Source: Liopterus haemorrhoidalis (taxonomy: Eukaryota > Arthropoda > Insecta > Coleoptera > Dytiscidae). Taken from it: a stretch of 64,000 bases of DNA. Both the position numbers and the translations under genes were made by a program. The stretch covers positions 4,316,279 to 4,380,278 of the forward strand of contig OZ020622.1 in NCBI GenBank assembly GCA_963971575.1. Reading direction: 5' to 3'. This document shows, in pieces, positions 11,833-43,496 of this stretch (position 1 is the stretch's first letter; the number at the start of each line of letters is the position of its first letter). Below the pieces are notes generated by a model. It was not told the origin of the DNA, made no database searches, and saw nothing but the letters and a program-made list of their open reading frames with translations.

Positions 11833-12190
11833 TTTGGCGATTTATTGACTATAGTTAAAACTAGAGAACATTGTCTGTAATTTCACCTGCCGTTCTTAAT
11901 TAGTTCGCTACAACTGTATGTTACCTCAAAAATAAACAACTGCACTGGACAAAATTCAAAACTTTAAGAATAAAAAATGTCACAAGTCAATCTGACACCT
12001 GATTGAATAATAAACCATATGTAATCGACACAGTTGTCAATACAACCAGTAGAAGCAAAATAAAAAGCTTAATTATATTAGGTTTAAACATATTTAATAT
12101 TTTAGGTTTTTATTAACTTTGTGACGAAATTCCTCACCACATTTAAATCACCTTAAGAAGATTTATAATTGTTTGTTTTTTTTTTTTCAG

Positions 12191-12238
12191 GTAAGTCCAC
12201 TTGACTTCTTTCAGCATGATTCAGGAACTGCGTTCGTG
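12191..12238 (+). promoter_or_regulatory. Candidate recursive splice site with RS-exon (12190/12191)
   Basis: A long T-tract (from about 12171) ends in CAG at 12188-12190 and is followed at once by GTAAGT. This is the juxtaposed 3'ss/5'ss consensus of insect ratchet points. A second donor, GTG|GTATGT, follows at 12238/12239 and would define a 48-nt exon that is open in one frame (VSPLDFFQHDSGTAFV). An alternative acceptor, TTCTTTCAG, lies at about 12212. Recursive sites occur in long insect introns, so this suggests plus-strand transcription through the window. The call is from sequence only; no flanking exon is visible here. Confidence 0.5.
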
Positions 12239-12500
12239 GTATGTAATTTTATAACAATTATAATTTTTTGAATCATTATTTTTGTAATAAAATAATGAAA
12301 ATTTATTTCTGTGAAATTTTTATATAAATAATTTAAGTTAATTAAATGCATTAATATAATGAAAATATATTTGTGTGAAATTTACGTGGTAATAGTTAAT
12401 TGTAGAATTTATCTTCCTATTAGAGTTGAATCACTAATTTTAGTATTCAGTTTGAATATTTTAATTATGAGTTTAATAGTGGATGAACACAGTGGCGTAC
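12239..12500. other. No recognisable feature
   Basis: AT-rich sequence between the splice-site candidate and the LINE tail. Open stretch 12359-12550 shows no domain. Confidence 0.4.
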
Positions 12501-12665
12501 TGGGTGAAAATGCACGAAACTTAGAAGGAATAGAGGTAAACCACCGATGAACGATATTAAGAAAATTGCTGGATATTGGCTATTGCTAGTCCAAGATAGA
12601 ATAATTTGGAGAAGAAATGGAGAGGTCTATGTTCAGCAGTGGAAAAAATCGACTAGATTTAGAGG
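12500..12665 (+). pseudogene. RTE-like LINE ORF2 C-terminal scrap
   Basis: The translation IKKIAGYWLLLVQDRIIWRR, then EVYVQQWKKST, matches the C-terminus found in the RTE copy at 38829-39833 (VAGNWYSVAQDRSEW... EAYVQQWTRKAD). It is truncated at its 5' side and has no clear tail or target duplication. It is a decayed 5'-truncated insertion. Confidence 0.7.
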
Positions 12666-12814
12666 CAGACCTTTTTTGACCGATCAAAATATAAACCCCG
12701 GTCCCTCTCTGCCCTTATAAAAACATTTATCTTCTAAGTACCACAAGAAAAGCGCGCCTGAGCCTAAAAATACACCCGACAATCTCCAAAGAAGGAGCAG
12801 ATTGTTTACAGAAC

Positions 12815-12935
12815 TATTGGGTTGTTACATAAGTCTGTTCGTTTTTTTTTTCACCTTTTATTCAGTAAAATATACATTCTAAAAAAACTTTTATTATCAA
12901 ATGTACTGTCTATTATTTTCACTTTGGACTTTTTG
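12815..12935 (-). mobile_element. Solo mariner 3' end (same family as 14125-14690)
   Basis: Starts after TA with TTGGGTTGTTACATAAGTCT and continues with the T-tract, 'attcagtaaaatatac' and TTATTATCAAATGTACTGT blocks that end the palindromic mariner at 14.1 kb. It breaks off near 12935, so only about 120 bp of terminal sequence remain. Confidence 0.75.
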
Positions 12936-14122
12936 TTTCAAATTTATCCTTTTAATATAAACCTATTTGTTTAATATTATTAAGCAACTAATACTACATC
13001 TATTAAGTAAATATGGAACTAAACATGTACTGTGTATATGTTCATATGAGTACGGGCTCAACTCAAACATAACTCTGTTAATCATCGTCAGAGATGTACA
13101 AATTCGCTAAATCTACAAACATGTGCATTATAGCGCCTCTACGGTCCGTAAACAATAATTAACTAACTTAAGACGCAACCAGATAATTTTAAAAAGAAGT
13201 TAAATCCAATTACAAGTGCCTATCTTTAATCATTTGCGAGTATGAGTTGTGGGATAAATAAAACCCTGACACCAAAATATTGGTTGAGAGGAAAATTGTT
13301 ACTAGACTAATTAAAGTACGAGGAATCTAAAAATTTAAACCAGAACACTCTACTTTTGTCATTTTCCCTCGGAAATAATATTTCTTTTTGACAGACCGAG
13401 AAAAGGGCTCAGAAGCCCAAATATTTAGTAGGACGAAAGGAGGACATGTAAGTTAGGCAAGAGAGGATCATCTAAAGGAGGACTGTCCAGCCCAAAGGAG
13501 TACTGTTACGTACTATGTAGGTGCATACAAGGAAGTCGCCACACCATATCAAAGAAATAAATATCTATTTCATACAGTGCTATGTAAAATTCAGTGATAT
13601 CTGTGAGCATATCCGTCATCACTTTGGATTTCTTCTATTAAATGATCTTTATATCAATATTCTTATATTTGTGTTTGTGTATTTTTTTGGAAGATATGTT
13701 AATTGATTTTTTTGGTCATAAATTTACCTGAACGCTTAATAAAGCAGAAAAGGGTCACTGAAGAAAATAAATGTTGCGGAAAAATTGATGACAAAGTCTG
13801 AACTAAAAACTTTTTCACGCACATTATTGATCGAATATTTACTTGTGACATTTTTTTTTTTTTGAATAATATTTTAACCAATCTTAGGAAAGGAAAGGGT
13901 TATTTACATCCTTAGGTTGTCAAAAGAGTTCTTAAAAAATGTTTTAACATCAATAGAATTTGAAATACGGTTCGGAAAATGATGGTAGTTTGTTAAAATT
14001 CTCAGAAAGAGTATCAATGATATCGTTAGGAAATTCTTGCTAAAAGCACAATAAAACTACCTGCTCCAGTGGTTTTTAACCGGTATTCTGCGCCATAAAA
14101 GTGTACCACGAGATAAAGAAAA
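12936..14122. other. No gene recognised
   Basis: About 1.2 kb of AT-rich sequence. Two short open stretches (13521-13706 plus, 13699-13881 minus) have no domain features. A purine-rich patch lies around 13420-13500. Confidence 0.45.
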
Positions 14123-14692
14123 TATTGTTACATAAGTCCGTTCTTTTTTTCTACCTTTTATTCAATAAAATATACATTCTAAAAAAAACTTTTATTATCA
14201 AATGTACTGTCCATTATTTTCTATCACTTTGGACAAACGCTCAAGCAATTCATAAATCCATCTCTCCAGAAGGTTCCGTCTTTGCTCTCGAAAAATCTGT
14301 CCAGGTGAATTTTGATATCGTCCACAGATGCGAAATTCTTTCCGTTAAGGGAATTTTGTAGAAAGCAGAACAAATGGTAGTCGAATGGTGCGATGTCTGG
14401 ACCATATGCTCCGACTACCATTTGTACCGTTCTCTACAAAATTCCCTTAACGGAAAAAATTTCGCATCTTTGGACGATATCAAAATTCACCTCTACAGAG
14501 TTTTCGAGAGCAAAGACGGAACCTTCTGGAGAGATGGCATTATGAAATTGCCTGAGCGTTTGTCTAAAGTGATAGAAAATAACGGACAGTACATTTGATA
14601 ATAAATGTTTTTTTAGAATGTATATATTCTTAAACCAACGTTGAAAAAAAAAAAAAAAGAAACGAACAGACAACGTTTTGTAACAACCCAAT
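14123..14692. mobile_element. Palindromic mariner (two inverted 3' halves)
   Basis: The left half (14125 to about 14395) and right half (about 14415-14690) are inverted copies of the same mariner 3' end, joined by a short spacer (about 14378-14414). TA flanks both sides (14123-14124, 14691-14692). Each half encodes the C-terminal part of a DD34D transposase outward from the centre: LQNSLNGKNFAS, DDIKIHL, SKDGTFWRDG, then LPERLSKVIENNGQYI and stop in the right half. The DYHLF context of the third catalytic Asp lies at the centre. No N-terminus remains. Confidence 0.85.
14417..14598 (+). pseudogene. Mariner transposase C-terminal fragment (right arm of palindrome)
   Basis: Reads DYHLYRSLQNSLNGKNFASL then DDIKIHLYRVFESKDGTFWR and ends ENNGQYI, stop 14596-14598. 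This is the last ~60 residues of a mariner of the type with DYHLFRSLQNSLNGK after the third catalytic Asp. The mirrored minus-strand copy lies at 14224-14385 with slightly different residues. It has no catalytic capacity. Confidence 0.75.
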
Positions 14693-15499: not shown

Positions 15500-15568
15500 A
15501 TGTCTCAACCAATTCAATGTACACCGCCGGAATTAGCAGCAATAGCATCTGAAACTATAAAGTCATAA
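15500..15568 (+). pseudogene. Short ORF, possible leader of an uncharacterised transposon protein
   Basis: The ATG in an AAAATG context opens MSQPIQCTPPELAAIASETI, then KS and a stop. The PPELAAxASETIKS string resembles the start of insect transposon-borne tyrosine-recombinase-like proteins as I recall them. Nothing of the downstream protein is visible here. Weak call. Confidence 0.25.
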
Positions 15569-15632
15569 GTATTTATGGTTGCAAATTTTTAATACCTACG
15601 CTTGAAGAAAAAATAATATATATCACTCGGAG

Positions 15633-17592: not shown

Positions 17593-17599
17593 AAGTCGC

Positions 17600-24112: not shown

Positions 24113-25240
24113 TTTATAGGTATGACCAAAAAACCCTTATACCGTCATTTTGTCATCTGTCTGTCTTTAGGGTTTTGTAGGTATGACCAAAAAACCCTTA
24201 TACCGTCATTTTGTCGTCTGTCTGTCTGTCTGACTGTCTGTTCGGTACAAATTGTAGCCCAGCGGCTAAACCTAGAGAGTTGAAATTTAGCACGCTTATA
24301 CAACTCTTTGACCCGCACATAGGAAAAATACTAAAACATCTAAAAAACATATCCCCCTAAAAATATAAACAAATATGTGCTCATCGAAAAAAAAAATATT
24401 TTTTTATATTTCTGAGTAGGGTATCAAATGAAAGCCCTTGGTTCGTGGATTAACGATCATATTTTTATTTTTGCAAAATAAATTATTTTGAAGCGATTTT
24501 TGCCAAAATTGTGCAAAAAAAAAAATTTGTCCCACACCCTGTAGCCCAGATGGTTTAAACTAAAAATCTGAAAAAATTCTAAGTAATGTAAATTGGTGTG
24601 AACCGGAATAGTACAACAGGAATTTTTGATCAGATTATGTTTTTAGAAAAAAACGCATTTTTGTGTTTTTTGGCTAATAATGTACACAAGTTATAGCTTT
24701 GTAACACGTTACACTAGAAGGTGTATGCTGGTCTAGTGGTTATGACGCTGGCTTTTCACCCAACTTGATCCGAAAAGGATCGAACCCTGCAAAAAGAGAC
24801 AATATTATTTTTTGTTTTTTTTTTTTTTGAATTTTTATATTGTTTAAATTATTTTTTCAAAATTCTAGTTATATTTTGGCAAATGTTGCATTTAATTTTT
24901 AAAAGCGTAAATTTAATAAACAGTGGAAATTGTTTTAAATTATAATTTAATTCTGTTTCAATGTACACGAAATCAGAGGGGCGGCGCTTATAACAACCAA
25001 TGGAAGCCATAGGCACAATTTTTAAAATTCGTAATGAACCTTGCTATATAAATATAAAAAAAAAAAAAAAAAATACTGCACATATTTAGAAACCAAAATA
25101 ATGGTATTAGGCGTTCGAATTAAAATTAACAAAAAAAAAATAATATAAAATTTGTTTTGGCATCCCAAATAATCATCATTCACTTACTAAATACCTGCAA
25201 AACCCTGAAATGTGTGAAAATTCACACTTCACATCAATTT
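24106..25240 (+). repeat. Family E repeat (tRNA-cored), near full-length copy b
   Basis: It starts with two copies of the 5' module AGGGTTTTGTAGGTATGACC, each followed by AAAAAACCCTTATACCGTCA (24108 and 24166). Next come (GTCT)n, then 'gggtatcaaatgaaagccc', 'cccacaccctgtagcccag', and 'gatcagattatg'. The tRNA-like module is at 24725-24790. The 3' half ends with the hairpin GTGTGAAAATTCACAC (25212-25227) and TTCACATCA. The two outer ends share AGGGTTTTGYAGGTAT in opposite orientation. There is no conserved ORF. Confidence 0.85.
24725..24790 (+). other. tRNA-Glu-like module of family E copy b
   Basis: TGCTGGTCTAGTGGTTATGA is a good A box in the eukaryotic tRNA-Glu style. CTGGCTTTTCACCCA resembles a tRNA-Glu anticodon arm (TTC loop). 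GGATCGAACCC is B-box-like. The T arm and acceptor stem do not fold canonically, so it is tRNA-derived rather than a tRNA gene. A Pol III promoter role is possible but untested. Confidence 0.6.
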
Positions 25241-25269
25241 TTTGAGTTACGCAAAAACAATAATAATTT

Positions 25270-25665
25270 TTCGTCTAAAATGCTGGAATCTCTCCAACTG
25301 AGAATTGTCGAACGAAGGAATAATAATTTAGTTGGCTTACTAAAATACCTATACAACTCATCAAATTATAACACTACATACGAATCGGAAGTAAATTCCA
25401 TATTACTACTGCCGTCTAAATCAATATTGCAAGCTACAGCTAAAAAGTTATTTGCTAAACTTTTTGTTGCAAATGCGGATGCTTGTAGTATGGAAGATTT
25501 AGATAGTAGTGGTGATGAGGCTAAAAATTCACTGATGGCAGAGCGAGAAATCACGTCTGAAATGAGAATTGTCAAAAAAAGGTTATTGTTCGGCCAGGTT
25601 TGGAGAAGTAATGAGAAGGCCCAATACTCAACGAATTCCATGACGATGATGATTATTTTTCACAT
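25270..25665 (+). pseudogene. hAT-like transposase C-terminal fragment
   Basis: The meaningful part of the open frame begins at MLESLQLRIVERRNNNLVGL and continues KYLYNSSNYNTTYESEVNSI, LLLPSKSILQATAKKLFAKL, MAEREITSEMRIVKKRL. The pattern (LVGLLKYLxN..., LPSK...A..L..RLF, then EMxxxKKEL) resembles the helical region just before the hATC dimerisation domain. It ends where hATC should begin. The upstream codons (25157-25240) are family E sequence read in frame, so the apparent 171-codon ORF is chimeric. Confidence 0.5.
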
Positions 25666-29292: not shown

Positions 29293-30142
29293 ATAATGTG
29301 AGATTGAGAACTTCTGGTGGTATACAAAAATTGCGTTTTGTTCACATTACAGGTAAGAAGCTTCTAATCTTAAAGCAGCAAAGCAAACGTTGTCTTGGAA
29401 ACGTGGTATTGAGTAAACAGTCTCCCGCTGAGGTCTTGGGTCACAACCCCCTTTCCCCCAGGAGACCCTGCTTCAAATATAATGAACCCACCGTAATAAA
29501 ACTCTTACCTTGGTTTTATTGAGGGTTCCATGGATTTCCTTACAAAATCAAACTTATAACAGACCTGTCATTCGATTGAAAATTTTATGTTTTTGTTACG
29601 AATAATTTAAACGAAAATTTCATGAATAATAATTAAAGAATAATTGAATGGGAGAATAATTTAAAGGAGGATTTAATATGACAGTAAATTTGAAGTTTAT
29701 TAATACATTTTAAATTAAAATATTAATATTAAACATTGAGAACTTTTGGCTTACTTCTACATCTGCACAAACCAAGTATTGATTAATATGTCGCTTACTA
29801 CAATTGATTATTACACTGGTCCATTGTAGGTGCAAATAGCTTTTGTTTGTGTTAATTTTTTTAACTAACTAAGAAGAGGTCCTGGATGACAAAGGAAGAT
29901 TGCCTGGCTCGGTTACCTAAGGAAGTGGTTCGGAGAAACATTTACAGAACTATTTTGCAATGGGACAACAGATGAGACAAGAAAAGATTGGCACTCAATA
30001 AAAATCAATACAATGTAAAATAATTTTGAAAAATATTTTCCATAGTTAAACTGAACAATTTGATTGGATAAGATAGGAAAACGATTAATTTTTACTCAGT
30101 CATTTATATTGTTAAAACTAAAAATAATTTGAGACGTTAATT
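29293..30142. other. No gene recognised
   Basis: About 850 bp. A patch at 29875-29990 translates as RLPKEVVRRNIYRTILQWD, which might be a LINE scrap but cannot be assigned. Confidence 0.4.
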
Positions 30143-30995
30143 TATGCCTACGAAACCCTATACATTCCTGTATGCAATTATATTCGTAGATTCTTAGAGA
30201 ATAAATCTGCAAAATATTGTTCATTTCGGCCAAAAGATATAACAGTGTCTAAAGTTTATTTTTTATGCCTACAAAAACCTAGACATTTCTATATATAATT
30301 ATATTCGTAGATTTTTAGAGAATAAATCTGCAATATATTGTGCATATCGGTTAAAGGATATAGGCTTGTCTAGAGTTTTTCGTTTATGCCTACGAAACCC
30401 TAAACATTTGAATATGTAATTTTATCCGCAGTTTCTTAAAGAATAAATCTGCAAAATATTGTTCATATCGGTTAAAGGGTATAGGATTGTCTAGAGTTTC
30501 TTATATTCGTAGATTCTTAGAAAATAAATCTGCAAAATACTGTTCATATCGGTCAAAGGATACAGGAGTATTCTACGGTTTCTTAAATAATAAATCTGCA
30601 AAATATTTTTCATATCGATCAAAGAATATAAAAGTGTCTAGAGTTTCTTGTTTATGTCTACAAAACACTAGACATTTCTATATGGTGCTTTATGCACAGA
30701 TTTTTAGAGAACAAATCTGCAAAATATTTTTCATATCGATCAAAGAATATTGGAGTGTTTAGAGTTTCTTATTTATGTCTACGAATCCCTAGACATTTCT
30801 GTATGTTACTTTGTCCCCAGAATCTTAGAGAATAAATCTGCAAAATATTGTTCATATCGGTCAAAGGATATAGGAGTCTCTAGTTTATGCATACGAAATC
30901 CTAGACATTTATGTATGTAATTATATTCGTAGATTCTTAGAGAATAAATCTGCAAAATATTGTTCATATTGGTCAAAGGATATAGGATTGTCTGC
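30143..30995. repeat. 121-bp minisatellite array (about 7 units)
   Basis: Units begin TATGCCTACGAAACCCTA and contain GAATAAATCTGCAAAATATT and TCATATCGGTCAAAGGATAT. Unit starts are seen at 30143, 30264, 30385, 30653, 30774 and 30886. Three intervals are exactly 121 bp. Between 30500 and 30652 two shortened units of about 75 bp lack the TATGCC part. Mismatches are scattered among units. It ends just before a hAT transposase C-terminus. Confidence 0.93.
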
Positions 30996-31047
30996 CAATC
31001 ACGAGAACTTTAGGAAAAATGGACGTAACAATGTTACCGACACCACG

Positions 31048-31209
31048 TTATGTCTTTGCGAAGCAGAATTTTCAACGATGGTTAATATTAAGACAAAGAA
31101 ACGCGAGAGCCTGGGAAATTTAGAAGAGAAGATGCGAGTTGATTTATCATTTATTCGTCCCAATATTGCTGAAATCTGCAAAGATCACCAAGCTCATGTA
31201 TCGTATTAA
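31048..31209 (+). pseudogene. hAT transposase C-terminus (ZBED5/FAM200-like)
   Basis: The open frame ends LCLCEAEFSTMVNIKTKKRE, then LEEKMRVDLSFIRPNIAEIC, KDHQAHVSY and stop (31207-31209). The CExxFSxxVNIKTKxR...L...I.P.I..LC...QAHxS pattern is the last stretch of the hATC dimerisation domain in the ZBED5/FAM200/GTF2IRD2-related hAT branch. The frame upstream of about 31048 is not similar and runs into the minisatellite, so the hAT copy is 5'-truncated. It is a dead fragment. Confidence 0.65.
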
Positions 31210-31992
31210 ATTAGAGATTTTTTTTAAAGCATTGTAATTTTAAGTGGTTTTTAAATAAATATTTTTCCATCAATCAATATTTTATTCTTTTATAAAAGAA
31301 ACACTTTGAAGAAGGGGGTGGACAATCCTGCGCCCGCGAGACTAAGCACACTAGCGACACTATGCCTTTTTTTTTTCTTCAATAATGAATTTGTTTTTGC
31401 GAGAAATGTCCTTTTTTCTCATTGCGCCCTTGATTTCAAAAATGTTGTTCTTTACAACTTGAGTTGTATTGGTAGTGTTCCGCGCAAAAAAAATATCAGA
31501 GTTTAGTGTTCCCCGATTTCAAAAAGATTGTGAACCAAGGTAATAGAGTACTGTTTAAGTAGAAACGGAAAAATGAATTTTCTCGTTATTTTTTAACCCA
31601 ATTCCTCCGCCCCTGACAGTGACAAGCCTTCCCTTCTCATATCATGGCACGTTGAAGCCTTCAGCGACATTCTTACATCCTCGTGTCAAAAAAGATCAAT
31701 GATGGACCAACACCAGATATCGAAACTCGGAAAATGTTCTTTGCAACACCTTCTTTTTACTATATCCATCATGCGAGGACAGGTACACCATTCTTAATCA
31801 AAATGTCTTCATAATTCTATTCTTAGTTTCTATTTCAGGAGTTATGACAAGAATTCTCGATCTATAAGTGGAGACAGGAAAAAATTTCACTCATTTTACA
31901 CCACGAAAATAAAGTAATTAGTTATTACTTCAAACAGCGGTTGCCAGACTTTTTTGACTTGTAATATTTGTCGACGAAGATTCTGAACTATT
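31210..31992. other. No gene recognised
   Basis: A block at 31460-31505 (GTATTGGTAGTGTTCCGCGC ... ATATCAGAGTTTAGTGT) is shared with the 80-bp tandem repeat at 51066-51225. The rest shows nothing. Confidence 0.45.
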
Positions 31993-31993
31993 A

Positions 31994-32048
31994 CAAGGGT
32001 TACCTTTTATGTTTTTAAAAACGACCACTAGATGGCAGTATTGAAATG
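31994..32048 (+). mobile_element. Solo mariner terminal repeat
   Basis: CAAGGGTTACCTTTTATGTT followed by 'tttaaaaacgaccactagatggcagtattgaaatg' is a second copy of the 5' end of the mariner starting at 32198, in the same orientation, about 200 bp upstream. Confidence 0.75.
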
Positions 32049-32195
32049 CAGTATCGACACTGACGTTACCGCTGACGCCTGCCAAAACAAGACTATGGTT
32101 CAATCTAGAAGGTTATAAAATATAAGAGATGCTATTAGTTCGGATGGTGAGCAAGAATTATTGTCTTGTTTCACTCACTCTACTCACATCTGTAA

Positions 32196-33446
32196 TACGA
32201 GGGTTACCTTTTATGTTTTTACAAACGATCACTAGATGGCAATATTGAAATGTGTCATTACTGTATTCGTAAAATTTTACATTTTTTATTGTGAAAACAG
32301 TAGCAGCTTATAGTTTGTTGACATTGAGCGTTACAAAAAAAAACAAGTTTGTGAAAAAATGGATATTACTCGGGAAGGTGTTCGTTGGATGATTTTTTAC
32401 GATTTTAGTAAAGGCCTAACTCAACAACAATGCATATATTCGCTTCGTTCAACTTTTGGTAATGAAGCACCATCAGAAAAGACTCTTTACAATTGGTTTG
32501 CAGAATTTCGTTGTGGTTGTGTGTTCGTCAGTGATGAATCTTGTGAAGGTCGACCATAATCGGTGATTCAAAAAATATCGATGCTGTGCGCAAAATAATT
32601 GAAAAAGATCGGCATGTGACTTACCGTGAGATAGAGGCATCCTTTGGCACATCGCAGACTGCAATAAATTCGATTTTGCATGAACATTTAGTTGTGAAAA
32701 AGATCTGTTCCTGATGGATTTGGCATAATTTGACCGAAGCTCAAAAAACTGCTCGTGTTGATTGGTGTAAGGGAATGCTAAAAAAATTCAACCTATGCAC
32801 TGCAAAATCCGTTTACATCATTACAGATGACGAAACTTGGATATATTCATATGAACCAGAAACTAAGCAACAATCTACTGTTTGGGTTTTCCAAGATGAA
32901 CCAAAACCCACAAAAGTTGTTCATTCACGAAGTACTTCCAAGAAAATAAGCGCTTGTTTCTTCGGTTTTATTGGACATGTCGCAACCATTCCTTTAGAGG
33001 ATCGGACAACAGTTAATGCTGAATGGTATTCAATTTGTTTGCCAGAAGTCATGGACAAAATCAGGAAAAACAACCAAAAACGTCGCATCATTCTTCATCA
33101 TGACAATGCAAGCTCCCACACAGCAGGTCAAACAATTGATTATTTGAAGGAGAAAAACATCGAATTAATGTCTCTAATTTTTTTTTTTTGTTCCCCACTG
33201 TCACGAAAAATGCGCGGACAACGATTTTCATCACCTCAAGAAGCTGTTGAAACCTTCGAAAACCATGTTTTTGAGAGACCAACTTCAAAGTAAACGAAAA
33301 AATATTTTGAGAATTGGTTTGAATGCAGGAAAAAGTGTATAAATCTTAAAGGCGAATATTTATAAAAGCAATAAAACAATTTGTTCCACAAAAAAATATA
33401 TATATATTTCTTTCTTAGTTTTTGTAAAAACTTAAAAGCCCTCGTA
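32196..33446 (+). mobile_element. Mariner DNA transposon (DD34D type), nearly full length
   Basis: Element 32198-33444 (1247 bp) with inverted ends CGAGGGTTACCTTTTATGTT (left) and CGAGGGCTTTTAAGTTTTTA (right, read inward), with TA on both sides (32196-32197, 33445-33446). Length and layout fit a mariner. Other fragments of the family lie at 31994, 40700, 44753, 48427 and 50388. Confidence 0.92.
32359..33293 (+). pseudogene. Mariner transposase, inactivated
   Basis: Domains in order: HTH region (MDITREGVRWMIFYDFSKGL, LYNWFAEFR), a stop at 32557-32559, a frameshift near 32570, the second HTH (REIEASFGTSQTAINSILHE), a stop at 32712-32714, then the catalytic domain. The first Asp is in TDDETWIYSYEPETKQQSTV (canonical GDESW) and the second in HHDNASSHTA. 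A deletion near 33170 removes the SPDLSPND box with the third Asp (now LMSLIFFFCSPLSRKMRGQR). The frame ends early at 33291. It cannot encode an active enzyme. Confidence 0.9.
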
Positions 33447-33447
33447 T

Positions 33448-33965
33448 AAAGTCCGTTCTACATTATACTTTTATCAATACTATCCAACTCTGACGTCATT
33501 TCAACTTTTGATACTACAGAATATAGTTGGGGGAAATTATAAGAGACAGCGATATCTTCTATCTTTTATTACTTTGTGATACTCTTCACTGCCAACTTAA
33601 AAAATTTTAGGTTCAGGTGACAGACAACAGTTTGGTTATAGAACCAATTCTAGTAACCAATTTATAAATATTGTTTAATTGTGCTTAAGTTTATATTTAA
33701 TTATATGTTTTAAATAAACTTATCTACTTAATAAATTTCTAAAAGTTAAGTTGTAAACAAAAACTAAAAAGTTTGTAGTTGGTACTGAGAAGTATACAAC
33801 TGTCATCCAAAAATTTGATCGGAGGTAGTTTTGAAATTAGTGTAGTTTGTAGTGTAGCATCGAAAGTTGGAAGAAAGTATTGCGTTTCACATTATACTTT
33901 CTACGTCAGTGCAACGCAAAAGATCTGTAGTGCTTCGCAAAAAAGTATAATGTAGAACGAACTTA
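33448..33965. mobile_element. MITE abutting the mariner 3' end
   Basis: The left end AAGTCCGTTCTACATTATAC then TTTT, and the right inverted AAAAAGTATAATGTAGAACG then AACTTA, are complementary apart from one or two bases. It lies directly next to the mariner's TA duplication. About 515 bp, non-coding. Confidence 0.75.
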
Positions 33966-34124
33966 AGAAACTTATAAACTTTGGGGTATATTCGTACCTT
34001 TAAAAGGTAATTTTTTAAATTTCCGCTCCGTTATTAATAGGATATTGAAGGTATTTGAAGTAAAAACAACGATCTAAATTTTGCAGAGAATATATTACAT
34101 TATCTGCTATGTTTTGTATGCTAG

Positions 34125-34472
34125 TTTTCAGTCTATAAATGTTCTAAGGCGGATCTGGATGCACACAACTTGGGGGCATTTGTAGTTAAGTTCCTTGTAG
34201 TCTACGAAGTATGCTGTCTAGTCTACTGTTTATTCTTGACAAAGGAGTTACAACGCAAAATAAAAACAAATGAAGACTCTAGAGTGTTCTGTCTTTATTT
34301 CACAGCAATCTTTAATACCTTAACACAATGGAAATATGAAACAAAGGTTATTAAACTTGAAGATGAATTAATAAAAAGAAAAGTTTATAAAACACACTTT
34401 ACTAAATCGCTCTTTGTTTCGCATTTGTATAAAAAGTTAGATACATTGGAAGTATTCAAGAAGCAACAATAA
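34125..34472 (+). CDS. Unrecognised ORF (~115 codons)
   Basis: Open from after a TAG near 34118 to a stop at 34470. Contains SKADLDAHNLGAFVVKFLVV, a hydrophobic stretch (VVYEVCCLVYCLFL), then a lysine-rich helix-like C-terminus (TKELQRKIKTNEDSRVFCLY ... LYKKLDTLEVFKKQQ). An AATAAA overlaps the stop (34469-34474). An acceptor-like TAGTTTTCAG precedes it at about 34130. I recognise no family; it may be a transposon-borne terminal exon or a chance ORF. Confidence 0.25.
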   Translation, partial: FSVYKCSKADLDAHNLGAFVVKFLVVYEVCCLVYCLFLTKELQRKIKTNEDSRVFCLYFTAIFNTLTQWKYETKVIKLEDELIKRKVYKTHFTKSLFVSHLYKKLDTLEVFKKQQ

Positions 34473-34497
34473 ATTCTTAAGTTTATCGTAAAACATG

Positions 34498-34535
34498 GTT
34501 TCTGAAAGCTTAGTTAACTACAGCCATACTTTTTT
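34498..34535. repeat. PIF-like MITE end (fragment)
   Basis: GGTTTCTGAAAGCTTAGTTA then ACTACAGCC matches the end of the MITE at 38513-38648. Confidence 0.6.
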
Positions 34536-34559
34536 ACTGGATTATTATTGCTAATACAT

Positions 34560-35268
34560 TAGTAGAATATTACCTCAACATTGGTTTCATCCGTCCATAT
34601 AACTTTAGCCTAGTCGTCTTCGGTCCAATTTTTGTATTTTTTGCCCACGAAAGACGTAGTATCTTATGCCTGTCAGTGAGAAGTGGTTTACGTCGTGCCA
34701 GTAGTGGAGCTATGTCATAACTGTGACACTTTGGCCTTGAAAGTCCGACCAGCCGACTTTCACTGAAACCTGATGTAAAAAGATGTGGTTTTTTGAGGCT
34801 TGACTGTTGGACTGTCAGCCGTGCCTTCTCGAAAGCCGTGCTGGAATCGTGTAGGATAAGTTATAAGTTATAAGTTAACTGAATAGTTATATAAAAGCGA
34901 TATGTATTTCTCCCATGCAAATTACGTTGAACAAGTCTTCTTCTAACACTACTTGCTACCAAATTTATTCCGTGGTCTTGCAGTAATTCGGAAGAGAGTT
35001 CTTTTGAAGTTTTCGTCCTATCTCGAAGAGATATCCGCTCCAAAATACAGTCTTGCCTTGCACTGGTTCTTCGTTTTCGGCCACTTTTGGGTCGATTTTC
35101 ATAAGATCCAATCTCGTTGAACCGTTCAATTGTTGTTTGGACTGCGCACCGAGAACATTTCATTTGTTTTGCAATATCGCATTGGGTGACACCCTGCTTA
35201 TGCAATATCACTATCTGGGCGCGCTCGCCAACTGTTAATTGTCTTTTTTCGGCATCTACACACTTCAA
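34560..35268 (-). pseudogene. Tc1-like transposase, broken
   Basis: The start near 35268 gives MKCVDAEKRQLTVGERAQIV, ILHKQGVTQCDIAKQMKCSR (HTH), NRPKSGRKRRTSARQD (GRPR-like hinge) and ASSVRRRLVQRNLHGR. The frame then decays into unrelated residues and stops at 34861. A downstream part in another frame reads RRKPLLTDRHKILRLSWAKK, KNWTEDD, AKVIWTDETN, with the first catalytic Asp in the WTDET context. The remaining catalytic region is absent. No complete TIR pair was identified. Confidence 0.8.
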
Positions 35269-35612
35269 TAATTCGTTAAACCAAAATTTTTCTTAAATCA
35301 ACACTTGCTCACTTGGATAAAATCTGTATTAGAACTGATTGCTATTGAACGAAAAACCTATCTTATATGGCATCCCCCTCAGCTTGTTTGGAGTTTAATA
35401 TATTAAAATCATACCTTCCCAAAAGTCATTAGGGCTTCTACGAAGCACACCTGTATTCCTTAACTGCCTCGAAACTTGTTAATCTGGGCTAAGTACGTGG
35501 CTAAGGCCCGAGATGTGTACGTCGTGCCATTTAACATCGGCGTCAAGGACTATTGTCTCCCGGAGTTATTTTGCTGCACTACAACACTCATCCACACAGC
35601 GTTTTTTTTTTT
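35269..35612. other. No gene recognised
   Basis: Includes a T-rich run at 35601-35619. No similarity to the named repeats was noticed. Confidence 0.4.
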
Positions 35613-35619
35613 TTTTTTA

Positions 35620-35688
35620 GTTGCAGTGGCTCCGTGGTAAGACGGTTGCCTACGGAGCACAGGAACGCTGGTTTGAAACTTCCCACCT
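35620..35688 (+). other. Second tRNA-like module next to family E copy d
   Basis: TGGCTCCGTGGTAAGACGGT (A-box-like) and CGCTGGTTTGAAACTTCCCA (B-box-like GGTTTGAAAC) with about 45 nt between, abutting the family E 5' module at 35692. It follows a run of T. It is unlike the other modules in its anticodon part. Whether it belongs to E or is another tRNA-derived insert is unknown. Confidence 0.4.
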
Positions 35689-35689
35689 C

Positions 35690-36615
35690 TTGATTTTTAG
35701 GATTTGGTAGGTATGACCAAAAAACCCCTATACCACCATTTTGTCGTCTGTCGTGAGTAGACTGTCATGAGTAGACAGACAGAGACTGTCTGACAGTAGA
35801 CTTATGTAATGTACATTTGTGTAAATTGGAATAATACAACAGGAATTTTTGATCAGATTATGTTTTCGGAAAATAACGCATTTTTTGTGTTTTTTGCTTA
35901 ACCGTGTAAAATATTTAATGATATTATGTACTTCACTAAACAGAGCGCTTCGATGGTGTAATACTTAGTATACTGGCGTTCTAATTTGCAAACTCGAGTT
36001 CAATCCGGCCTCGAAGCAATTTAATTTTTTCTGTTTTTTTTTTGCATCTTTATTTTGTTTAAATTATTTTTTCAAAATTCTAGTTATATTCGGGCAAACA
36101 TTGCATTTAATTTTTAAAATCATAAATTTAATAACCAGTTGAAATTGTTGAAATTGAATACTATTGGACTTACAACCAAGTAACTTAAAATATAACGTAA
36201 CTATAAATATATAATACCATGGAGACAAGTAAAAAAAAAAATATATATATAAAATATATGTTATGTCATGTGTTATAAAGTCTGTATCATATTAGTGCCT
36301 TAATATATTACTGCTATACTGCTATTTATATTCCTATAAAAACACGAAAACAGAAGGGCGAAGCTTATGACTAAAACAACTAATGGAAGCCATAGGCACA
36401 ATTTTCAAAATCTTATTGAACCTTGCTATATAAACAAAATACTGCACATATTTAGAAACCTACATAATGGTATTAGGCATTCGAATTAAAATTAACAAAA
36501 AAAAAAAAAAATTTACATAAAATTTGTTTTGGCATCCCAAATAATCATTATTCACTTACTAAATACCTACAAAACCCTGAAATGTGTGAAAATTCACACT
36601 TCACATCAATTTTTT
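35690..36615 (+). repeat. Family E repeat (tRNA-cored), copy d
   Basis: 5' module TTTAGGATTTGGTAGGTATG (35695), then GTCTG-type sequence, then a jump straight to the 'caggaatttttgatcagatt' block (35841), so the middle of the 5' half is deleted. The tRNA-like module is at 35947-36017. The 3' half follows with an insertion at about 36150-36345, and the hairpin end GTGTGAAAATTCACAC lies at 36587-36602. Confidence 0.8.
35947..36017 (+). other. tRNA-like module of family E copy d (71 nt, closed acceptor stem)
   Basis: GCTTCGA (35947-35953) pairs perfectly with TCGAAGC (36011-36017), giving a 7-bp acceptor stem at tRNA length. The D-arm region TGGTGTAATACTTAGTA and the T-arm-like GAGTTCAATCC are in place. 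It shares GCGTTCTAATTTGCAAACT with copy a. This is the most tRNA-like member, but no anticodon can be read with confidence. Confidence 0.6.
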
Positions 36616-37374
36616 TTATTACATACGTGGTTATTTAGCGAGGCGTCAGCCGAGGTAAATAAAATCCGCAATTCGTGATAAAAAAAAAACTCGATTTCAA
36701 TCCCTTGGTTCACAAATAACTATTTTCTGGGTCGTGAAAAAGTAACAATTTACATCTACATAAAATTGTTGAAGCCCATTAATTCAAGGAGTATATATAT
36801 CTAAATGTAGTCTTCCTAAACGTCACGCGTTTCAAATTCAACTTAGATGTAGTACAGCGTCGCCGTCGTCGGCGTCTTGATGCAACGTCGCTATTTTGAG
36901 AATGAGAAACTACGAATACGTTCAGCCACAATAACACAAATATCTAGAAACGCTATGTACTCCAGGGTCGGACTAGTATCTGTTGACAGATTAAACGAGA
37001 ACTCAAGTACGTGATTCACAATTTTGAATCGAAAATATATTTCTTAAATCGAAAAGTTTATTTTTAAAAGAAATAAAATCGATTTAAAGAATTTTAAAGT
37101 ATAAAATCGTGTTTACTTTTTAAAACTAAATTTTTACAACTGAATAAAATCAGAATATCTTTTTAAGTGTTTGAAAAATAGTTTCTATAGTTGTACATTC
37201 CTATTGTTACATATACCAGTGTTTCTCAATCCCCAGTTCGCAACAAGATTTAACCGACTGCGTAATATAATTAAATAGGTGTGGAAAAAATCATTTATAG
37301 TGATGAAATACTTATAAAACAAATAACACATTGTTAATAGAACAAATATTCGTAGACATCCAGTATTATATTGG
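36616..37374. other. No gene recognised
   Basis: Contains a CpG-rich patch around 36850-36895 (CGTCGCCGTCGTCGGCGTC) standing out from the AT-rich background; no function assigned. Confidence 0.4.
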
Positions 37375-37445
37375 CTTCTTACACTTATTAAATACCTACA
37401 AGACCTTGAAGTGTGTGAAAATTCACAGTTCACATCAATTTTTAA
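37375..37445 (+). repeat. Solo family E 3' end
   Basis: ACTTATTAAATACCTACAAG, then GTGTGAAAATTCACAG and TTCACATCAATTTTT. There is no other part of E nearby. Confidence 0.7.
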
Positions 37446-37879
37446 GTTTAAAATGCTTTCAAAAATATAAAATTAGATGTGGCCATTTTGGTGGTTTCTG
37501 TAAAACTACTAAAAGCATCGGCTTCATGAAAAGTTATATGCGACACCTCTCGGCTCGTATCAGGGCGTAGAAACGCTTCTAATGCACTTGGGCCATAACG
37601 CGGCGGATACCGACTTAAATGGAAGAAGAAACTCGAACAAATTTACACTAATTCACCCCTTAAATGCATGGGGTATCACCAAGATGCTTCAGAATAACTA
37701 TCAACCACGAGATGGTCATTGCAAAAATAAATTCACAACTTAAATAAAATAAAAACTTATATATAATCCAACTTAGCTTCTTTCGATAGTAACTAGATAG
37801 TAATTTATTTTTTAATGTTAAATGCCAGCATCACAAATATTAAGTGATATGTTGACTCATCTGCCCGACATATGTCAGT
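37446..37879. other. No gene recognised
   Basis: AT-rich sequence with no repeat or coding support. Confidence 0.4.
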
Positions 37880-38288
37880 TTACACTCGTCAGATGCAAGG
37901 TCTCCCATACAATGATTTTCCAAAACTCGTGAGCGGACCGAGCCTGAAAATCCGTCTAATTCGCCAGCTGGTTGCTATGATTCTTAAGAAGGAATAAAAG
38001 GTTTTTCAATTAAAATTAACATTTTAACTAATCCACTTTCAATACGATACTGGTTTTAATATTTTACACTAGACTTACTATTATGATAACAGCTAATCCA
38101 AAAGAGACAAGCATCAACCAATATTTTTACACACGTTCACTACTTGACACCAAAAACCAATTGACTCTTACAATTCTCTATGAATATGTTCCTCATGTCT
38201 TTAGCTGGACACGACTCATACATACAGATACAACTTATATACGGAATTATTGATTAATTTTAACTACATGCTACACAACCAAACACTC

Positions 38289-38425
38289 TAACGGCCGGAT
38301 TCTGAAAGTTTAGCCATGTTTAATCTTTTGGTTTTACTCGGTTACAATATAACAATCCCATAAGTAACCATAGCAACCATTTTCTAACCATTTGGTTATA
38401 GTTAACTAGGCTTTCAGAAACCTAA
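38289..38425. mobile_element. PIF/Harbinger-like MITE, copy 1
   Basis: Element 38292-38422 (131 bp); ends CGGCCGGATTCTGAAAG and CTTTCAGAAACC; 3-bp duplication TAA (38289-38291, 38423-38425). It is an inverted relative of the neighbouring copy. It sits at the position in family B where copy 1 carries the hAT MITE. Confidence 0.75.
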
Positions 38426-38509
38426 ATGTCTCTAACCCATAATGGACAAAATCTTATTGCCCTTAAATTTGACTTGGCTTTATGACTGGCCTTATTAACT
38501 GAACTATCT

Positions 38510-38651
38510 TGAGGGACGGTTTCTGAAAGCTTAGTTAACTATAACCAAATGATCAGAAAATGGTTGCTATGGATACTTATGGGATTGTTATATTGTAATC
38601 GAGTTTAGTTAAATGGTTAAATTCTGATAAGCTCTCAGAAATCGGCCCTGA
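38510..38651. mobile_element. PIF/Harbinger-like MITE, copy 2
   Basis: Element 38513-38648 (136 bp); ends GGGACGGTTTCTGAAAGC and inverted CTCTCAGAAATCGGCCC; 3-bp duplication TGA (38510-38512, 38649-38651). A 3-bp duplication is what PIF/Harbinger integration gives, though the usual target is TWA. Confidence 0.75.
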
Positions 38652-38819
38652 GAGGTTTACTTTGCTTAAATATAAAATATCTCTAACCCTTTTGAACTGT
38701 CCATCCTGTATTATCTTAAATCTAGCTTCACAATTTACTGGTAATTCAGATAAGTACCTCATTAGAAAAATAACCCAAAACTAATTTATTTTAAAGACAA
38801 AGATTAATTGTTATTTATG

Positions 38820-39842
38820 TGCATATGGGCATTATGTGCATATGTCATAAAAGCAATGCCACAAAGCAGAATAGATTATCGGTACACTAGACTGATAGAT
38901 AGTATTTATAGTAATGCTACGGCTTACGTAAAACTCCATACGAAAACGAAGAAATTTGGGATAGAACGCGGTGTGTGACAAGGCGGTCCGATTTCTCCTA
39001 AATTATTCAACGCAGCTCTGGAGTTTAAAAACTGTGACTGGGCGAATCGTGTTCTAGATATAGACGAAGTGAAACTTAACAATCTTAGATTCGTAGACGA
39101 TATTATTTTACTATCAGATAATGTAGCAGACATGGCGTACATGCTGGAAGAACTAAAAAGGGAAAACGAAAAAATTTGATCAAAGGTAAATATCTCTCAG
39201 ACGCAATTGATGACGAACCTAGTATTGAGTAACCATCTATACCTCGGTGGCAAACAGATAGAACAGGTTTTCAGCTACAAATATTAAGGGCATGACATTA
39301 GCATTGGCCGAGACAGTCAAACCAGTGAAATGAAACGCCGCATCGGTGTAGATTTCACATGCAACTTATAAAATTGCTTAAAAAAAAAAGGTTTCAACCA
39401 ATGCATACTACCTGTTCTAACATACGGATCAGAAACTCTGACATTAACAGCTAAGTCAGCTGAAAAATTAAGAGCTTCCCAAAGATCGATGGAGAGATCA
39501 ATACTAGGAATAAGTCTTGCTAATCGAAAAACAAATCAGTGGATTTGAGTACAAAAGTATGCGGCGTCATCTAAAGAATTGCTCGTTTTAAATGGAACTG
39601 GGTTGGACATGTGGCTAGACTTCAAGATGACAGATGGAAAAAAAAGATCCTAGATTGGAGACCCAGAGATACTAACAGAAGCAGAGGAAGACCCCAACTA
39701 GGTGGACAGATGACGTAAAGAGAGTTGCGGGGAACTGGTACTCAGTAGCACAAGATCGTTCCGAATGGAAAATGCTTGGGGAGGCCTACGTTCAGCAGTG
39801 GACAAGAAAGGCTGATTAATGATGATGATGTTTTGCATATGG
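38820..39842 (+). mobile_element. 5'-truncated RTE-like LINE with target duplication
   Basis: The insert runs from about 38829 to 39833 and ends in a GATGATGATG tail typical of RTE-type 3' ends. TGCATATGG is duplicated at 38820-38828 and 39834-39842. It lies inside family B copy 2. Confidence 0.85.
38870..39820 (+). pseudogene. RTE-like reverse transcriptase, broken
   Basis: Pieces in order: IDYRYTRLIDSIYSNATAYV, then GV*QGGPISPKLFNAALE (RT motif with a stop in place of Arg), then NLRFVDDIILLSDNVADM (catalytic FVDD box), a stop near 39176, further pieces (LTYGSETLTLTAKSAEKLRA) and a C-terminus in other frames (DDVKRVAGNWYSVAQDRSEW then EAYVQQWTRKAD, stop). Several stops and frameshifts. The endonuclease is missing through 5' truncation. 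Confidence 0.88.
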
Positions 39843-40000
39843 TCCGAATACATCTAATATTTATTTGACATTTTTGTGCTATAGAATTTACGATACACTT
39901 TCCATGTTAGATTTACATAGGGTTTAAGTTGCTCTAATAAACATGTCTGCCTTTAATGTGTCCCTTTCTAAGAAATAGATTATTTTTTATCACTTCAATT

Positions 40001-40699
40001 TTTTTAATAACACAAAGACAATAGGTAAACACAAAATATTTGGCGTAACAATATGGCGGAATAAGGCGACAAGGTGATTCTAGAGGAATAGTTACCTTAG
40101 TATATTTTTATTTGTGATGTTGGTACTCATTGATAAAAATATATTCCCCTGTTGCCTCATACATTTCAATTTAATTTCCCTGCGAGTTTCCCATCAACAA
40201 TAATACATTATTCTTTGACATATGAATATGTAGAACATTATAATGATGGATAAATAAATTTGTTATAAATTCCTGTCTAATTCATCATGTCGGTTATCTA
40301 ACGTAATAGACATGTCTTCTCCTTATCCTAAAAATATCGCACGTGCAGGCCCGGAATTAGGTCAGAATAACCCACGGGCTGACGGGAAATAATGTTTCTG
40401 CATTATAACAATGGGTACAAAGGTCAAAAGGAAAATGCCCGCGAGGACTTTTCATGATTTTCTCTGTTTTCGAGACTTATAGAGGGCTTTGAACTCTTCA
40501 TGTTATTAATTATGGTTTTGTTTTTCACGTGGAATTTGTTTTTTACCCTTAGGGTGATTATATTATTGTTTCTTAACGAATAAAGATGGACTTGGTACAT
40601 AAAAATTGTATATACCGAAGACGTTCAGTTATTTGAACTAATAGAAACCAGGGGAATTCATAATATGAAATTGTTCAAAAAATCGAACATTTATGTTTA
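40001..40699. other. No gene recognised
   Basis: About 700 bp of AT-rich sequence with no supported feature. Confidence 0.4.
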
Positions 40700-40722
40700 A
40701 TGGAAAAAATGTTTCGAGAATT

Positions 40723-41842
40723 GGTTTGAACGCATGCTGTTAGTTAGTTAGTTAGTTGAAATTTTTGGCGCACAGCAACAAAGGCTATTTGCGCCTAACG
40801 CAGCCCATCTAAATGACTAGACTATATATTAAAAACAAAAATTTAGACAATAAATAAATAAATAAATAAAATCATTAAAAATACGCATACTCAATAAAAG
40901 AAATCTTGCACTGACAAACACAAATAAATAATATAAAAGATCTGTTCGAAAATTTGAACAGACTCAGGGTGATGGTAAGAGGCTGTAAAGGGGCCAATTA
41001 CCATCGAATATCACAGTCAATAAATAGAAACACATTAAAATAAAGTGCAAGATTTCACACATAAAACAGTAAGTTCGATTCTCTCAGGAAGAGTATCAGC
41101 CTGTCCATGAGTACTCTGTCGTCACCTAAGGCAACTGACAGGTCATAGCACAGGCCTAACCTCTCCCTGACATCCTCGAACTGTACACATTCGGTTAAAA
41201 TGTGTAACACAGACAAATCTGTGTTACACGTCTCACAGACAGGGGACTCTTCACCTCGAAGGAGGTGTCCATGGGTCCACCAACAGTGACCTATACGAAG
41301 GCGTGTGATGGCGGTTTCCTCCCTGCGGTTAATCCTGCAGGAAGAACCCCATGGTTTAACGTCTCCCTTAATCTGTCGTAACTTAACGTTCTGTGTGCGG
41401 CTCCACTCATGTTGCCACATGTCTAAAACCAGATGTGTCAAATGACTCTTTGCGTCATCTGGAAAAACGAAACTCACATCAATCATAGGTCTGTGAGAGG
41501 CGGCTTTTGCAGCTGCATCTGCCGCTTCGTTGCCTTTAATACCAACATGTCCCGGTATCCAAAACAGCTCTACCCTCACATTCTGAGCATTCAGATTGTG
41601 GAGTAGCAACCGGATCTTTAGTACAAGAGGATGCACTGGATCTGGATCTTGGATACTGTTCAGAGCGCTCAGCGAGTCCGTCAAGATAACACTTGACCGA
41701 CTTTGCTCTGACGAAACAAAACACAGGGCCTTGAAAATAGCGTACAGCTCAGCAGTGTACACACTCGTTATGGAGTGCAGACGGTACTGAAACTGTTGGC
41801 GTGGATTCAAAACAACGAACGCACACCGGTTTGAACGCATGC
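40723..41842 (-). mobile_element. 5'-truncated RNase-H LINE with 15-bp target duplication
   Basis: Insert 40738-41827. GGTTTGAACGCATGC is duplicated exactly at 40723-40737 and 41828-41842. The tail, read on the minus strand, is (CTAA)n: ACTAACTAACTAACTAACA. A 3' end of the same family lies at 59580-59747 with its own duplication. The perfect duplication and open reading frame point to a recent insertion. Confidence 0.92.
41055..41827 (-). CDS. LINE ORF2 C-terminal region with RNase H domain, open but truncated
   Basis: Uninterrupted for about 257 codons to the stop at 41055-41057. RNase H residues visible: the Glu in VYTAELYAIFKALCF, an Asp in VILTDSLSALNS, and FWIPGHVGIKGNEAADAAAK with the last Asp. 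The first catalytic Asp lies in the part lost by truncation. Downstream is a CETCNTDLSVLHILTEC zinc-knuckle-like segment. RNase H after RT, this C-terminus and a short-repeat tail fit I/R1/Tad-like LINEs. The first five codons of the open frame (to 41840) belong to the flanking mariner, so no genuine start exists. Confidence 0.88.
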
Positions 41843-41925
41843 AAAAGTATATAAATCTTAAAGGCGAATATTTTGAAAAGCAATAAAACAGTTTGTTCCA
41901 AAAAAATTATTTCTTAGTTTTGAAA

Positions 41926-42391
41926 TAGTTCTAAAATTGTTTGTTTCAACTTTTGATGACTTGTATTGTTTCGCCTCTTTAAATTTTTATACGAATTTTG
42001 TTGGAATCGATCTTTGTTTCAGAGTTTTCCACCCTTGCTTTAGGTGAATATTGTCGTTGTTACATAACATTGCAGTTAAAGCTATTAGCACCAAATCAAT
42101 ACAGTGAAATATGTTTGTTATTTCAAATGTAGAATTAAATACGTTTCGGAGTAAATATTAATATGCGAAATTTGCTTTGATATTTTAAATGCCTGCAGGT
42201 CTTTTATGATCAAAAGACAACATCAAATATGATTTAATTCAGCTAATAATATATTAAATAGTTTATTTAATATTAATATTTTTAAAAATACCAATAATTT
42301 TATTTTATATACCGGTCCAATACTAAATTTACTGAATTTCTGTCACCACTGAACAAAATGCTCAGTTTAGTAAACAAGCAAGTCTCTGATA
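41926..42391. other. No gene recognised
   Basis: AT-rich spacer; nothing supported. Confidence 0.4.
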
Positions 42392-43333
42392 TGCTGGGTT
42401 TACATTGGTAGAGTAAAAGAGCTAGTAACTAGCGCAAGTAACTAGAAACTAGTTACTATCCCTGTGTAAACAGTTGACAATGTGACTAGTAGAGTACTAG
42501 CTTCTAATAGTTGGGCTAGGATAGCAGCTAGCTCGTCCACGTATTTACTAGCTACTTTCCCCCACTACGCAAAATTGATTCATTACAAATTGGTGGCAAG
42601 CGGTAACCTGTCATAACAAATTAAAAAAAAAAAAACATATCAGGTAAGTTACAATTTATTTACATAAATTGCTTAACATTGATTTATTAATTGATGATTT
42701 CTGAAATCATCTGTGGAATAGATGCCTTTGATACACGAAAAAGATGTTGTAGACTACGATAACTATTTCCTGTGGCTAGGAAATAAAGCGTTAATTCCAA
42801 TTTTATTATTGCTGGAATCGCATCCCTTACTAGTGTATCAGTTCGTTGTATTAACGGACTAACTAAATTTAATAGCCTATTAAAATCATCTGGTGCCATT
42901 CTTAAACACAGTCTGTACTCTTTTTGATCTTCCACGGCTAATTCACGAAATAGAAGGGCTGATGTGCCATGAATAGCTCTTCTAGCAATCCATTTTTAAC
43001 CCATTTTCGTTTAGGCTTATATTCTGTACCGATAACTTCAATAAGACAATAAGTTATTACCTCCACAAGAAATGATGTAATATAAAATACCATTTTTTAA
43101 TGGTATCACGCCGGCGACGATGTATATTCACAACTATTTTTTGCAAAAAGATAATTGCACAACAAAATCACAGTGAAGATGTCAAATGTGTTTTGACACT
43201 TACTATCCAGAAAATAAGATAGTATGCCAATTGTGTACCAACACCTACTATCCCGAAAATAAGATAGTAGAGTAAAGCGCGTAGTACTTGCGCTACTTAC
43301 TAGCTCTTTTACTCTACCAATGTAAACCCGGCA
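42392..43333 (-). mobile_element. PIF/Harbinger element, 942 bp
   Basis: The inverted ends start TGCTGGGTTTACATTGGTAG (left) and TGCCGGGTTTACATTGGTAG (right, read inward). They continue AGTAAAAGAGCTAGTAA for a TIR near 48 bp, with further subterminal repeats (TACTATC / GATAGTA). It holds a minus-strand Harbinger transposase remnant. Flanking 3-mers ATA and ATG are not identical. Confidence 0.85.
42687..42999 (-). pseudogene. Harbinger transposase (HARBI1-like) N-terminal remnant
   Basis: Reads KWIARRAIHGTSALLFRELA, VEDQKEYRLCLRMAPDDFNR, LLNLVSPLIQRTDTLVRDAI, KLELTLYFLATGNSYRSLQH, LFRVSKASIPQMISEIIN and stop. This is the conserved N-terminal part of PIF/Harbinger transposases (F..LL..V.P.I...DT..R.AI, LRFLATG.SYxSL...FRxS). 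A one-base frame change occurs just upstream of WIARRA (RKWVK precedes it in another frame). The DDE catalytic domain is missing. Confidence 0.87.
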
Positions 43334-43428
43334 ATGTGTTATAAATATTTATAGGAACTTAATTATTATTAATATTTTTATTATTGTCTAATTTATATTC
43401 AATGTTAATATTTATGTTTTTGTTCCAG

Positions 43429-43458
43429 GTAAGTGTCGCCACCTTTTGCCATATATGG
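43429..43458 (+). promoter_or_regulatory. Candidate recursive splice site with RS-exon (43428/43429)
   Basis: TTATGTTTTTGTTCCAG is followed directly by GTAAGT, again the fused acceptor/donor consensus. A second donor, ATGG|GTAAGA, follows at 43458/43459 and would define a 30-nt exon, open in one frame (VSVATFCHIW). It is on the same strand as the candidate at 12190/12191 and 31 kb downstream. Both candidate exons are multiples of three. Confidence 0.5.
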
Positions 43459-43496
43459 GTAAGAAAAAGGATTCAAAACATTTTTTAATGTCTATA

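What the first reader, a model, noticed from the sequence alone, without database searches (positions are those of the whole stretch)
12171..43464. Two plus-strand recursive splice sites 31 kb apart: the window may lie inside one giant intron
Seen: a pyrimidine tract plus CAG fused directly to GTAAGT at 12190/12191 and at 43428/43429. Each is followed within 30-48 nt by a second good donor (GTATGT, GTAAGA), giving candidate RS-exons of 48 and 30 nt, both multiples of three and open in one frame. Known: insect ratchet points have the consensus (Y)nNCAG|GTAAGT and sit in very long introns. Inference: the window is intronic, transcribed left to right, which would explain the absence of host genes.
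Basis: partly seen in the sequence, partly recalled or inferred. Interest (0 to 1): 0.8.

Follow-up and report, generated by a model that had tools for sequence, protein, structure and literature searches.

The report
Two likely recursive splice sites
A gene-poor stretch of what is probably arthropod DNA carries two well-formed 'ratchet' splice signals 31 kb apart on one strand, which most likely mark the inside of a giant intron removed in steps, a process already known from fruit flies.

Summary
The motifs are at the stated coordinates. Each is a pyrimidine tract plus CAG fused to GTAAGT, at 12190|12191 and 43428|43429, with weaker donors 48 and 30 nt downstream. Among 324 AG|GT junctions on both strands they score first and second, both on plus. 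Simulated sequence gives 0.004-0.009 such sites per strand per 64 kb; none of 2,200 simulated strands had two. A comparable donor 20-100 nt downstream occurs at 4.5% of positions, yet both sites have one. Neither site has a copy in the window. Pfam matches look mobile-element derived (plus strand fully scanned, minus partly). Best reading: two functional ratchet points with short cryptic RS-exons, inside a giant intron transcribed left to right. This is the known Drosophila mechanism, inferred here in an unnamed, probably arthropod, genome. The multiple-of-three exon lengths are weak evidence. Against: a minus-strand junction also scores higher than the simulations predict, so they may be somewhat optimistic. 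No RNA, related genome or host gene could be examined (the genome search did not complete), so transcription, conservation and 'one intron' remain inference. A probably real new example of a known kind.

The parts
12171..12190 (+). acceptor half of ratchet point 1: T-rich tract ending CAG
   Evidence: acceptor score 10.9 bits, the only one of 3124 scored AG on + that reaches 10.9
12191..12196 (+). regenerated donor GTAAGT of ratchet point 1
   Evidence: 9.3 bits including the preceding CAG
12191..12238 (+). candidate cryptic RS-exon 1, 48 nt, GC 46%
   Evidence: first of 9 candidate plus-strand exons bounded by splice-like sites with an open frame
12239..12244 (+). RS-exon 1 donor GTATGT, weaker than the ratchet donor
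   Evidence: 3.7 versus 9.3 bits
43409..43428 (+). acceptor half of ratchet point 2: T-rich tract ending CAG
   Evidence: acceptor score 7.2 bits, one of 9 on + reaching 7.2
43429..43434 (+). regenerated donor GTAAGT of ratchet point 2
43429..43458 (+). candidate cryptic RS-exon 2, 30 nt, GC 47%
   Evidence: only sixth of the 9 candidate plus-strand exons
43459..43464 (+). RS-exon 2 donor GTAAGA, weaker than the ratchet donor
   Evidence: 3.7 versus 9.3 bits
12191..43428 (+). inferred recursive segment of 31,238 nt, rich in mobile-element fragments, no host exon recognised
   Evidence: inference from the two sites

Best explanation
12191 and 43429 are two ratchet points in one very long plus-strand intron of a gene, probably of an arthropod, whose exons lie outside the window. 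After transcription passes 12191, the upstream exon is spliced to the CAG at 12190, with the 48-nt cryptic exon helped into recognition by its own donor at 12239. This puts a fresh GTAAGT at the junction, and because that donor is stronger than the RS-exon donor it is used next. The exon then moves to 43429, where the 30-nt cryptic exon plays the same part, and finally to the real downstream exon; no ratchet sequence stays in the mRNA. Shown here: the motifs, their rarity, the second donors, the strength order, no copy elsewhere in the window, and no clear host coding domain. Inferred: transcription, order of splicing, skipping, and that both sites share one intron.
For: First and second of 324 AG|GT junctions, both on +; 0.004-0.009 expected per strand, 0 of 2,200 simulated strands with two; 2 of 19 strong acceptors followed by GTAAGT, P=1.4e-5; reversed and complemented sequence 0 at score 8, reverse complement 1. 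Donors as strong 20-100 nt downstream at 4.5% of positions, present at both sites. Ratchet donor stronger than RS-exon donor, as is general for intronic ratchet points, whose cryptic RS-exons are short, about 50 nt (PMC8605326 Introduction). Neither site in a self-repeat. No clear host Pfam domain on + in three frames (the one MADF match lies in an element with inverted ends). 63% of fly introns over 40 kb have a high-confidence recursive site (PMC6110457 Results).
Against: No RNA, no conservation test, no host gene, no species name. The 31-kb spacing exceeds the typical fly 9-15 kb. A minus-strand junction scores 10.8 where 0.011-0.033 are expected (17694), so the simulations may understate chance. 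P rises to 0.0002-0.006 with looser definitions. RS-exon 2 ranks only sixth of 9 candidate plus-strand exons. Branch-point-like words close to the consensus are seen only at site 2. Base skew and AATAAA counts (147 on +, 148 on -) show no strand bias. The finding was picked from an unknown number of windows and patterns.
Confidence: 0.72

Rival explanations
1. The sites are real acceptors of short exons that are sometimes kept in mRNA: expressed RS-exons like Ubx m1 and m2. Inclusion would add 16 and 10 codons.
For: 48 and 30 nt are both multiples of three and both are open in frame 0; Ubx has two 51-nt RS-exons in one long intron (PMC8605326 Introduction).
Against: RS-exon donors are much weaker than the ratchet donors, which in flies mostly means skipping, though Ubx-m1 and msi reporters are included despite weaker donors (passages of PMC8605326). 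Two lengths divisible by three happen by chance in 1 of 9. No protein match was sought for peptides this short.
Confidence: 0.1
2. Chance resemblance in AT-rich intergenic or intronic DNA.
Against: 0 of 2,200 simulated strands had two such sites; both sites also have a second donor that 4.5% of positions have.
Confidence: 0.14
3. The splice signals belong to uncharacterised transposable elements or a short non-coding gene, and do not serve a giant host intron.
For: 27% of the window is self-repetitive and mobile-element proteins are frequent; site 2 lies about 95 nt beyond an element with inverted ends at 42392-43333.
Against: Neither site has a copy in the window. Genome-wide copy number could not be tested.
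Confidence: 0.04

Closest known systems
Drosophila intronic ratchet points with cryptic RS-exons (e.g. kuz, Bx; Ten-m as a many-site intron)
   Same: acceptor fused to donor, second weaker donor a short distance downstream, long gene-poor sequence (PMC8605326 Introduction; PMC6110457 Results).
   Different: 31 kb between the two sites against 9-15 kb typical in flies; host gene, species, splicing and conservation unknown here
Expressed RS-exons such as Ubx m1 and m2
   Same: two short exons, multiples of three, beginning with a donor
   Different: 48 and 30 nt instead of 51; weak second donors; no evidence of inclusion in mRNA
Mammalian recursive splice sites with RS-exons
   Same: acceptor followed by a regenerated donor and an RS-exon
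   Different: only nine fully suppressed mammalian ratchet points in long introns were noted as definite, against more than 500 in Drosophila (PMC8605326 Introduction)

Membership tests
Intronic ratchet point (zero-nucleotide recursive splice site) | juxtaposed strong 3' and 5' splice site motif | tested here: met
Intronic ratchet point (zero-nucleotide recursive splice site) | cryptic RS-exon with a downstream donor | tested here: met
   donors at +48 and +30; 4.5% of positions have one as good 20-100 nt downstream. Sequence only; recognition not shown
Intronic ratchet point (zero-nucleotide recursive splice site) | ratchet donor stronger than RS-exon donor | tested here: met
   9.3 versus 3.7 bits at both sites, recalled matrix
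Intronic ratchet point (zero-nucleotide recursive splice site) | lies in a very long intron of a transcribed gene | tested here: inconclusive
   no clear host domain found, but no flanking exon or transcript seen
Intronic ratchet point (zero-nucleotide recursive splice site) | split reads from an upstream exon, lariats, saw-tooth coverage | not testable with these tools
   no RNA data
Intronic ratchet point (zero-nucleotide recursive splice site) | conserved AGGT core between species | not testable with these tools
   the own-genome search did not complete; no collection of arthropod genomes offered
Expressed RS-exon (Ubx m1/m2 type) | exon found in mature mRNA in some tissue | not testable with these tools
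   no RNA data; frame open but uninformative

The most novel reading that the evidence does not exclude
Two in-frame, alternatively included microexons of 16 and 10 codons that are at the same time ratchet points, 31 kb apart in one giant intron of a non-model arthropod: a Ubx-like expressed RS-exon pair, so that one device both shortens the intron stepwise and chooses protein isoforms.
Probability: 0.08. Interest if true: 0.5.

Novelty: new member of a known kind. Interest (0 to 1): 0.33.

Why it matters
If RNA confirms it, it is a recursively spliced giant intron in transposon-swollen, probably arthropod, sequence, found from sequence alone. It would help to ask whether recursive segments lengthen with intron size or whether more ratchet points are added. 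It also gives gene-poor sequence a strand and a gene context.

Tried and rejected
Host gene. The window was scanned frame by frame with Pfam: the plus strand in all three frames (in 15-kb blocks, so a domain across a block joint could be missed), the minus strand in three frames for 1-45002 and two frames for 43001-58001; the third minus frame beyond 45002 and all minus frames of 58002-64000 were not scanned. Nine plus-strand blocks (three frames of 1-30002 and of 45001-60002) were compared with solved structures; 30003-45000 and the last 4 kb were not. What appeared: transposase, reverse transcriptase, RNase H, helix-turn-helix models (one stretch also reaching the PAX cut-off) and one MADF match. 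Proteins split over tiny exons would be missed.

Species. Relatives of two mobile-element proteins and one open frame were searched (the best 120 of 145, the best 120 of 190, and all 3 listed). Named relatives are scattered, mostly over arthropods (grasshopper, kissing bug, lacewing, scorpion, cockroach, spider, ants), with Hydra also among the mariner hits; no close match, not pursued.

Third ratchet site near the middle (29353, cacattacag|GTAAGA, score 6.7): rejected, since the minus strand has two that good (0.28-0.43 expected per strand). 42644 (CAGGTAAGT) rejected: A-rich upstream, inside an element with inverted ends. Strand bias of base composition and of AATAAA gave nothing. Rfam (gathering cut-offs) and the tRNA scan found nothing.

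Literature. PMC8605326: outline and abstract, Introduction, passages. PMC6110457: outline and abstract, Results, motif scoring. PMC13105047: abstract and outline only. Other papers only in listings, which were capped (20 of 31, 12 of 31, 12 of 27 and 15 of 4,365). I saw no title there on ratchet points in insects other than flies, but that is no claim of absence.

Full report
What was checked. The two junctions are present at the stated bases. The first is a run of 12 T followed by CAG and GTAAGT; the second is tatttatgtttttgttcCAG|GTAAGT. Each is followed by a second donor, GTATGT after 48 nt and GTAAGA after 30 nt, and no other donor above 1.5 bits lies in the 250 nt downstream.

Is it more than chance? 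The AG|GT junctions on both strands (161 and 163) were scored with a joined acceptor and donor matrix, the design used for flies (PMC6110457 motif scoring), but with frequencies recalled by me and not trained on this species. The two sites rank first (16.2) and second (12.5); next are 17694 on the minus strand (10.8, donor GTGTGT), 19942 on minus (7.4) and 29353 on plus (6.7). Simulations give 0.004 (order 3, 1,500 runs) to 0.0086 (order 5, 700 runs) sites per strand at or above 12.4; none of the 2,200 runs had two, nor did any of 600 runs. With a Poisson rate in that range, two on one strand of a window has a probability of roughly 2e-5 to 7e-5 (my arithmetic). A test without simulation: 19 acceptors on both strands reach 7.2 bits; 2 carry GTAAGT next, 0.0055 expected, P=1.4e-5. 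Using looser acceptor cut-offs (3 to 7 bits) and GTRAGN the P values are 0.0002 to 0.006. The downstream donors are a partly independent feature: 4.5% of plus-strand positions have one as strong 20-100 nt downstream, so both by chance is about 0.002 (the range was my choice).

What tells against it. The minus strand, which the hypothesis does not use, has one junction at or above 10.7 where 0.011-0.033 are expected and two at or above 6.7 where 0.28-0.43 are expected; real sequence may therefore make such junctions more often than the Markov models do. The number of windows and patterns from which this finding was chosen is unknown. Among 9 candidate plus-strand exons with splice-like ends and an open frame, the 48-nt one is first but the 30-nt one only sixth. 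Words fitting YTNAY upstream include CTAAT at -41 and TTAAT at -24 for site 2, but only CTCAC at -58 and TTTAT at -29 for site 1.

What surrounds the sites. GC is about 33%. 27% of the window is repeated within itself; neither site lies in such a repeat, and site 2 starts about 95 nt after an element with 49-bp inverted ends at 42392-43333. Protein matches: mariner-type transposase (some below Pfam's cut-off), reverse transcriptase near 38.9-39.3 kb on plus, RNase H near 41.5-41.8 kb on minus, a helix-turn-helix stretch near 34.9-35.3 kb on minus that I read as Tc-type transposase although it also passes the PAX cut-off, and a MADF match at 62404-62547 within an element with inverted ends. No Rfam family at gathering cut-off and no tRNA. 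Named relatives of the RNase H and mariner proteins are mostly from arthropods, so the source is probably an arthropod; the species could not be named.

How it most likely works. In flies a ratchet point is recognised together with a short cryptic exon, the upstream exon is joined to it, and the regenerated donor then outcompetes the donor of the cryptic exon, so the cryptic exon is removed with the next intron piece (PMC8605326 Introduction). Each step has its sequence counterpart here: acceptor, regenerated donor, short exon, weaker second donor (9.3 against 3.7 bits). The candidate exons have GC 46-47%, a value reached by 8-11% of equally long stretches of the window, which is suggestive at most. 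Transcription, the order of steps and the skipping are inferred.

That both exons are multiples of three and open says little: one pair in nine is so by chance, a GTAAGT at the start always puts TAA in one frame, and fly cryptic RS-exons are generally out of frame. The 30-nt exon is open in two frames. That the whole window is one intron does not follow: a small unrecognised exon could lie between or beside the sites. The lack of host genes fits an intron but also intergenic DNA.

Comparison. The features match intronic ratchet points of Drosophila in the three respects that sequence alone can show (juxtaposed sites, downstream donor, strength order). Spacing of 31,238 nt is two to three times the fly's typical 9-15 kb segments, as might be expected where introns are swollen by mobile elements, but further sites outside the window are unknown. 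Membership by its decisive features, split reads and conservation, could not be tested: there is no RNA here and the own-genome search did not complete.

Verdict. Probably real (0.72), a new example of a known kind, modest interest.

Noticed in passing
42392-43333: Element with 49-bp inverted ends (96% identical), holding the third CAGGTAAGT at 42644; probably a DNA transposon.
   Followed up: partly
62124-63027: Element with inverted ends and GC-rich CGCCACCGTGGC-type repeats, holding a MADF-like fragment at 62404-62547; looks like a DNA transposon piece rather than a host gene.
   Followed up: partly
30141-30991: Degenerate tandem arrays with a 121-bp unit, partly open as a reading frame.
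   Followed up: no
671-1197 and 14249-14546: Long inverted repeats close together (144 nt at 95%, 135 nt at 92%), hairpin-like; the second overlaps a weak mariner transposase match at about 14410-14595.
   Followed up: no
25130-25669: Plus-strand 180-aa open frame with only three short unnamed relatives, one bearing PF05699 (recalled as the hAT dimerisation domain); likely a transposon remnant.
   Followed up: partly
34861-35292: Minus-strand open frame, read as a Tc-type transposase fragment, whose helix-turn-helix also passes the cut-off of the paired-box (PAX) model.
   Followed up: no
17694: Minus-strand T-rich acceptor fused to GTGTGT, third-best juxtaposed site of the window; weak donor, yet better than simulations predict for one strand.
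   Followed up: partly
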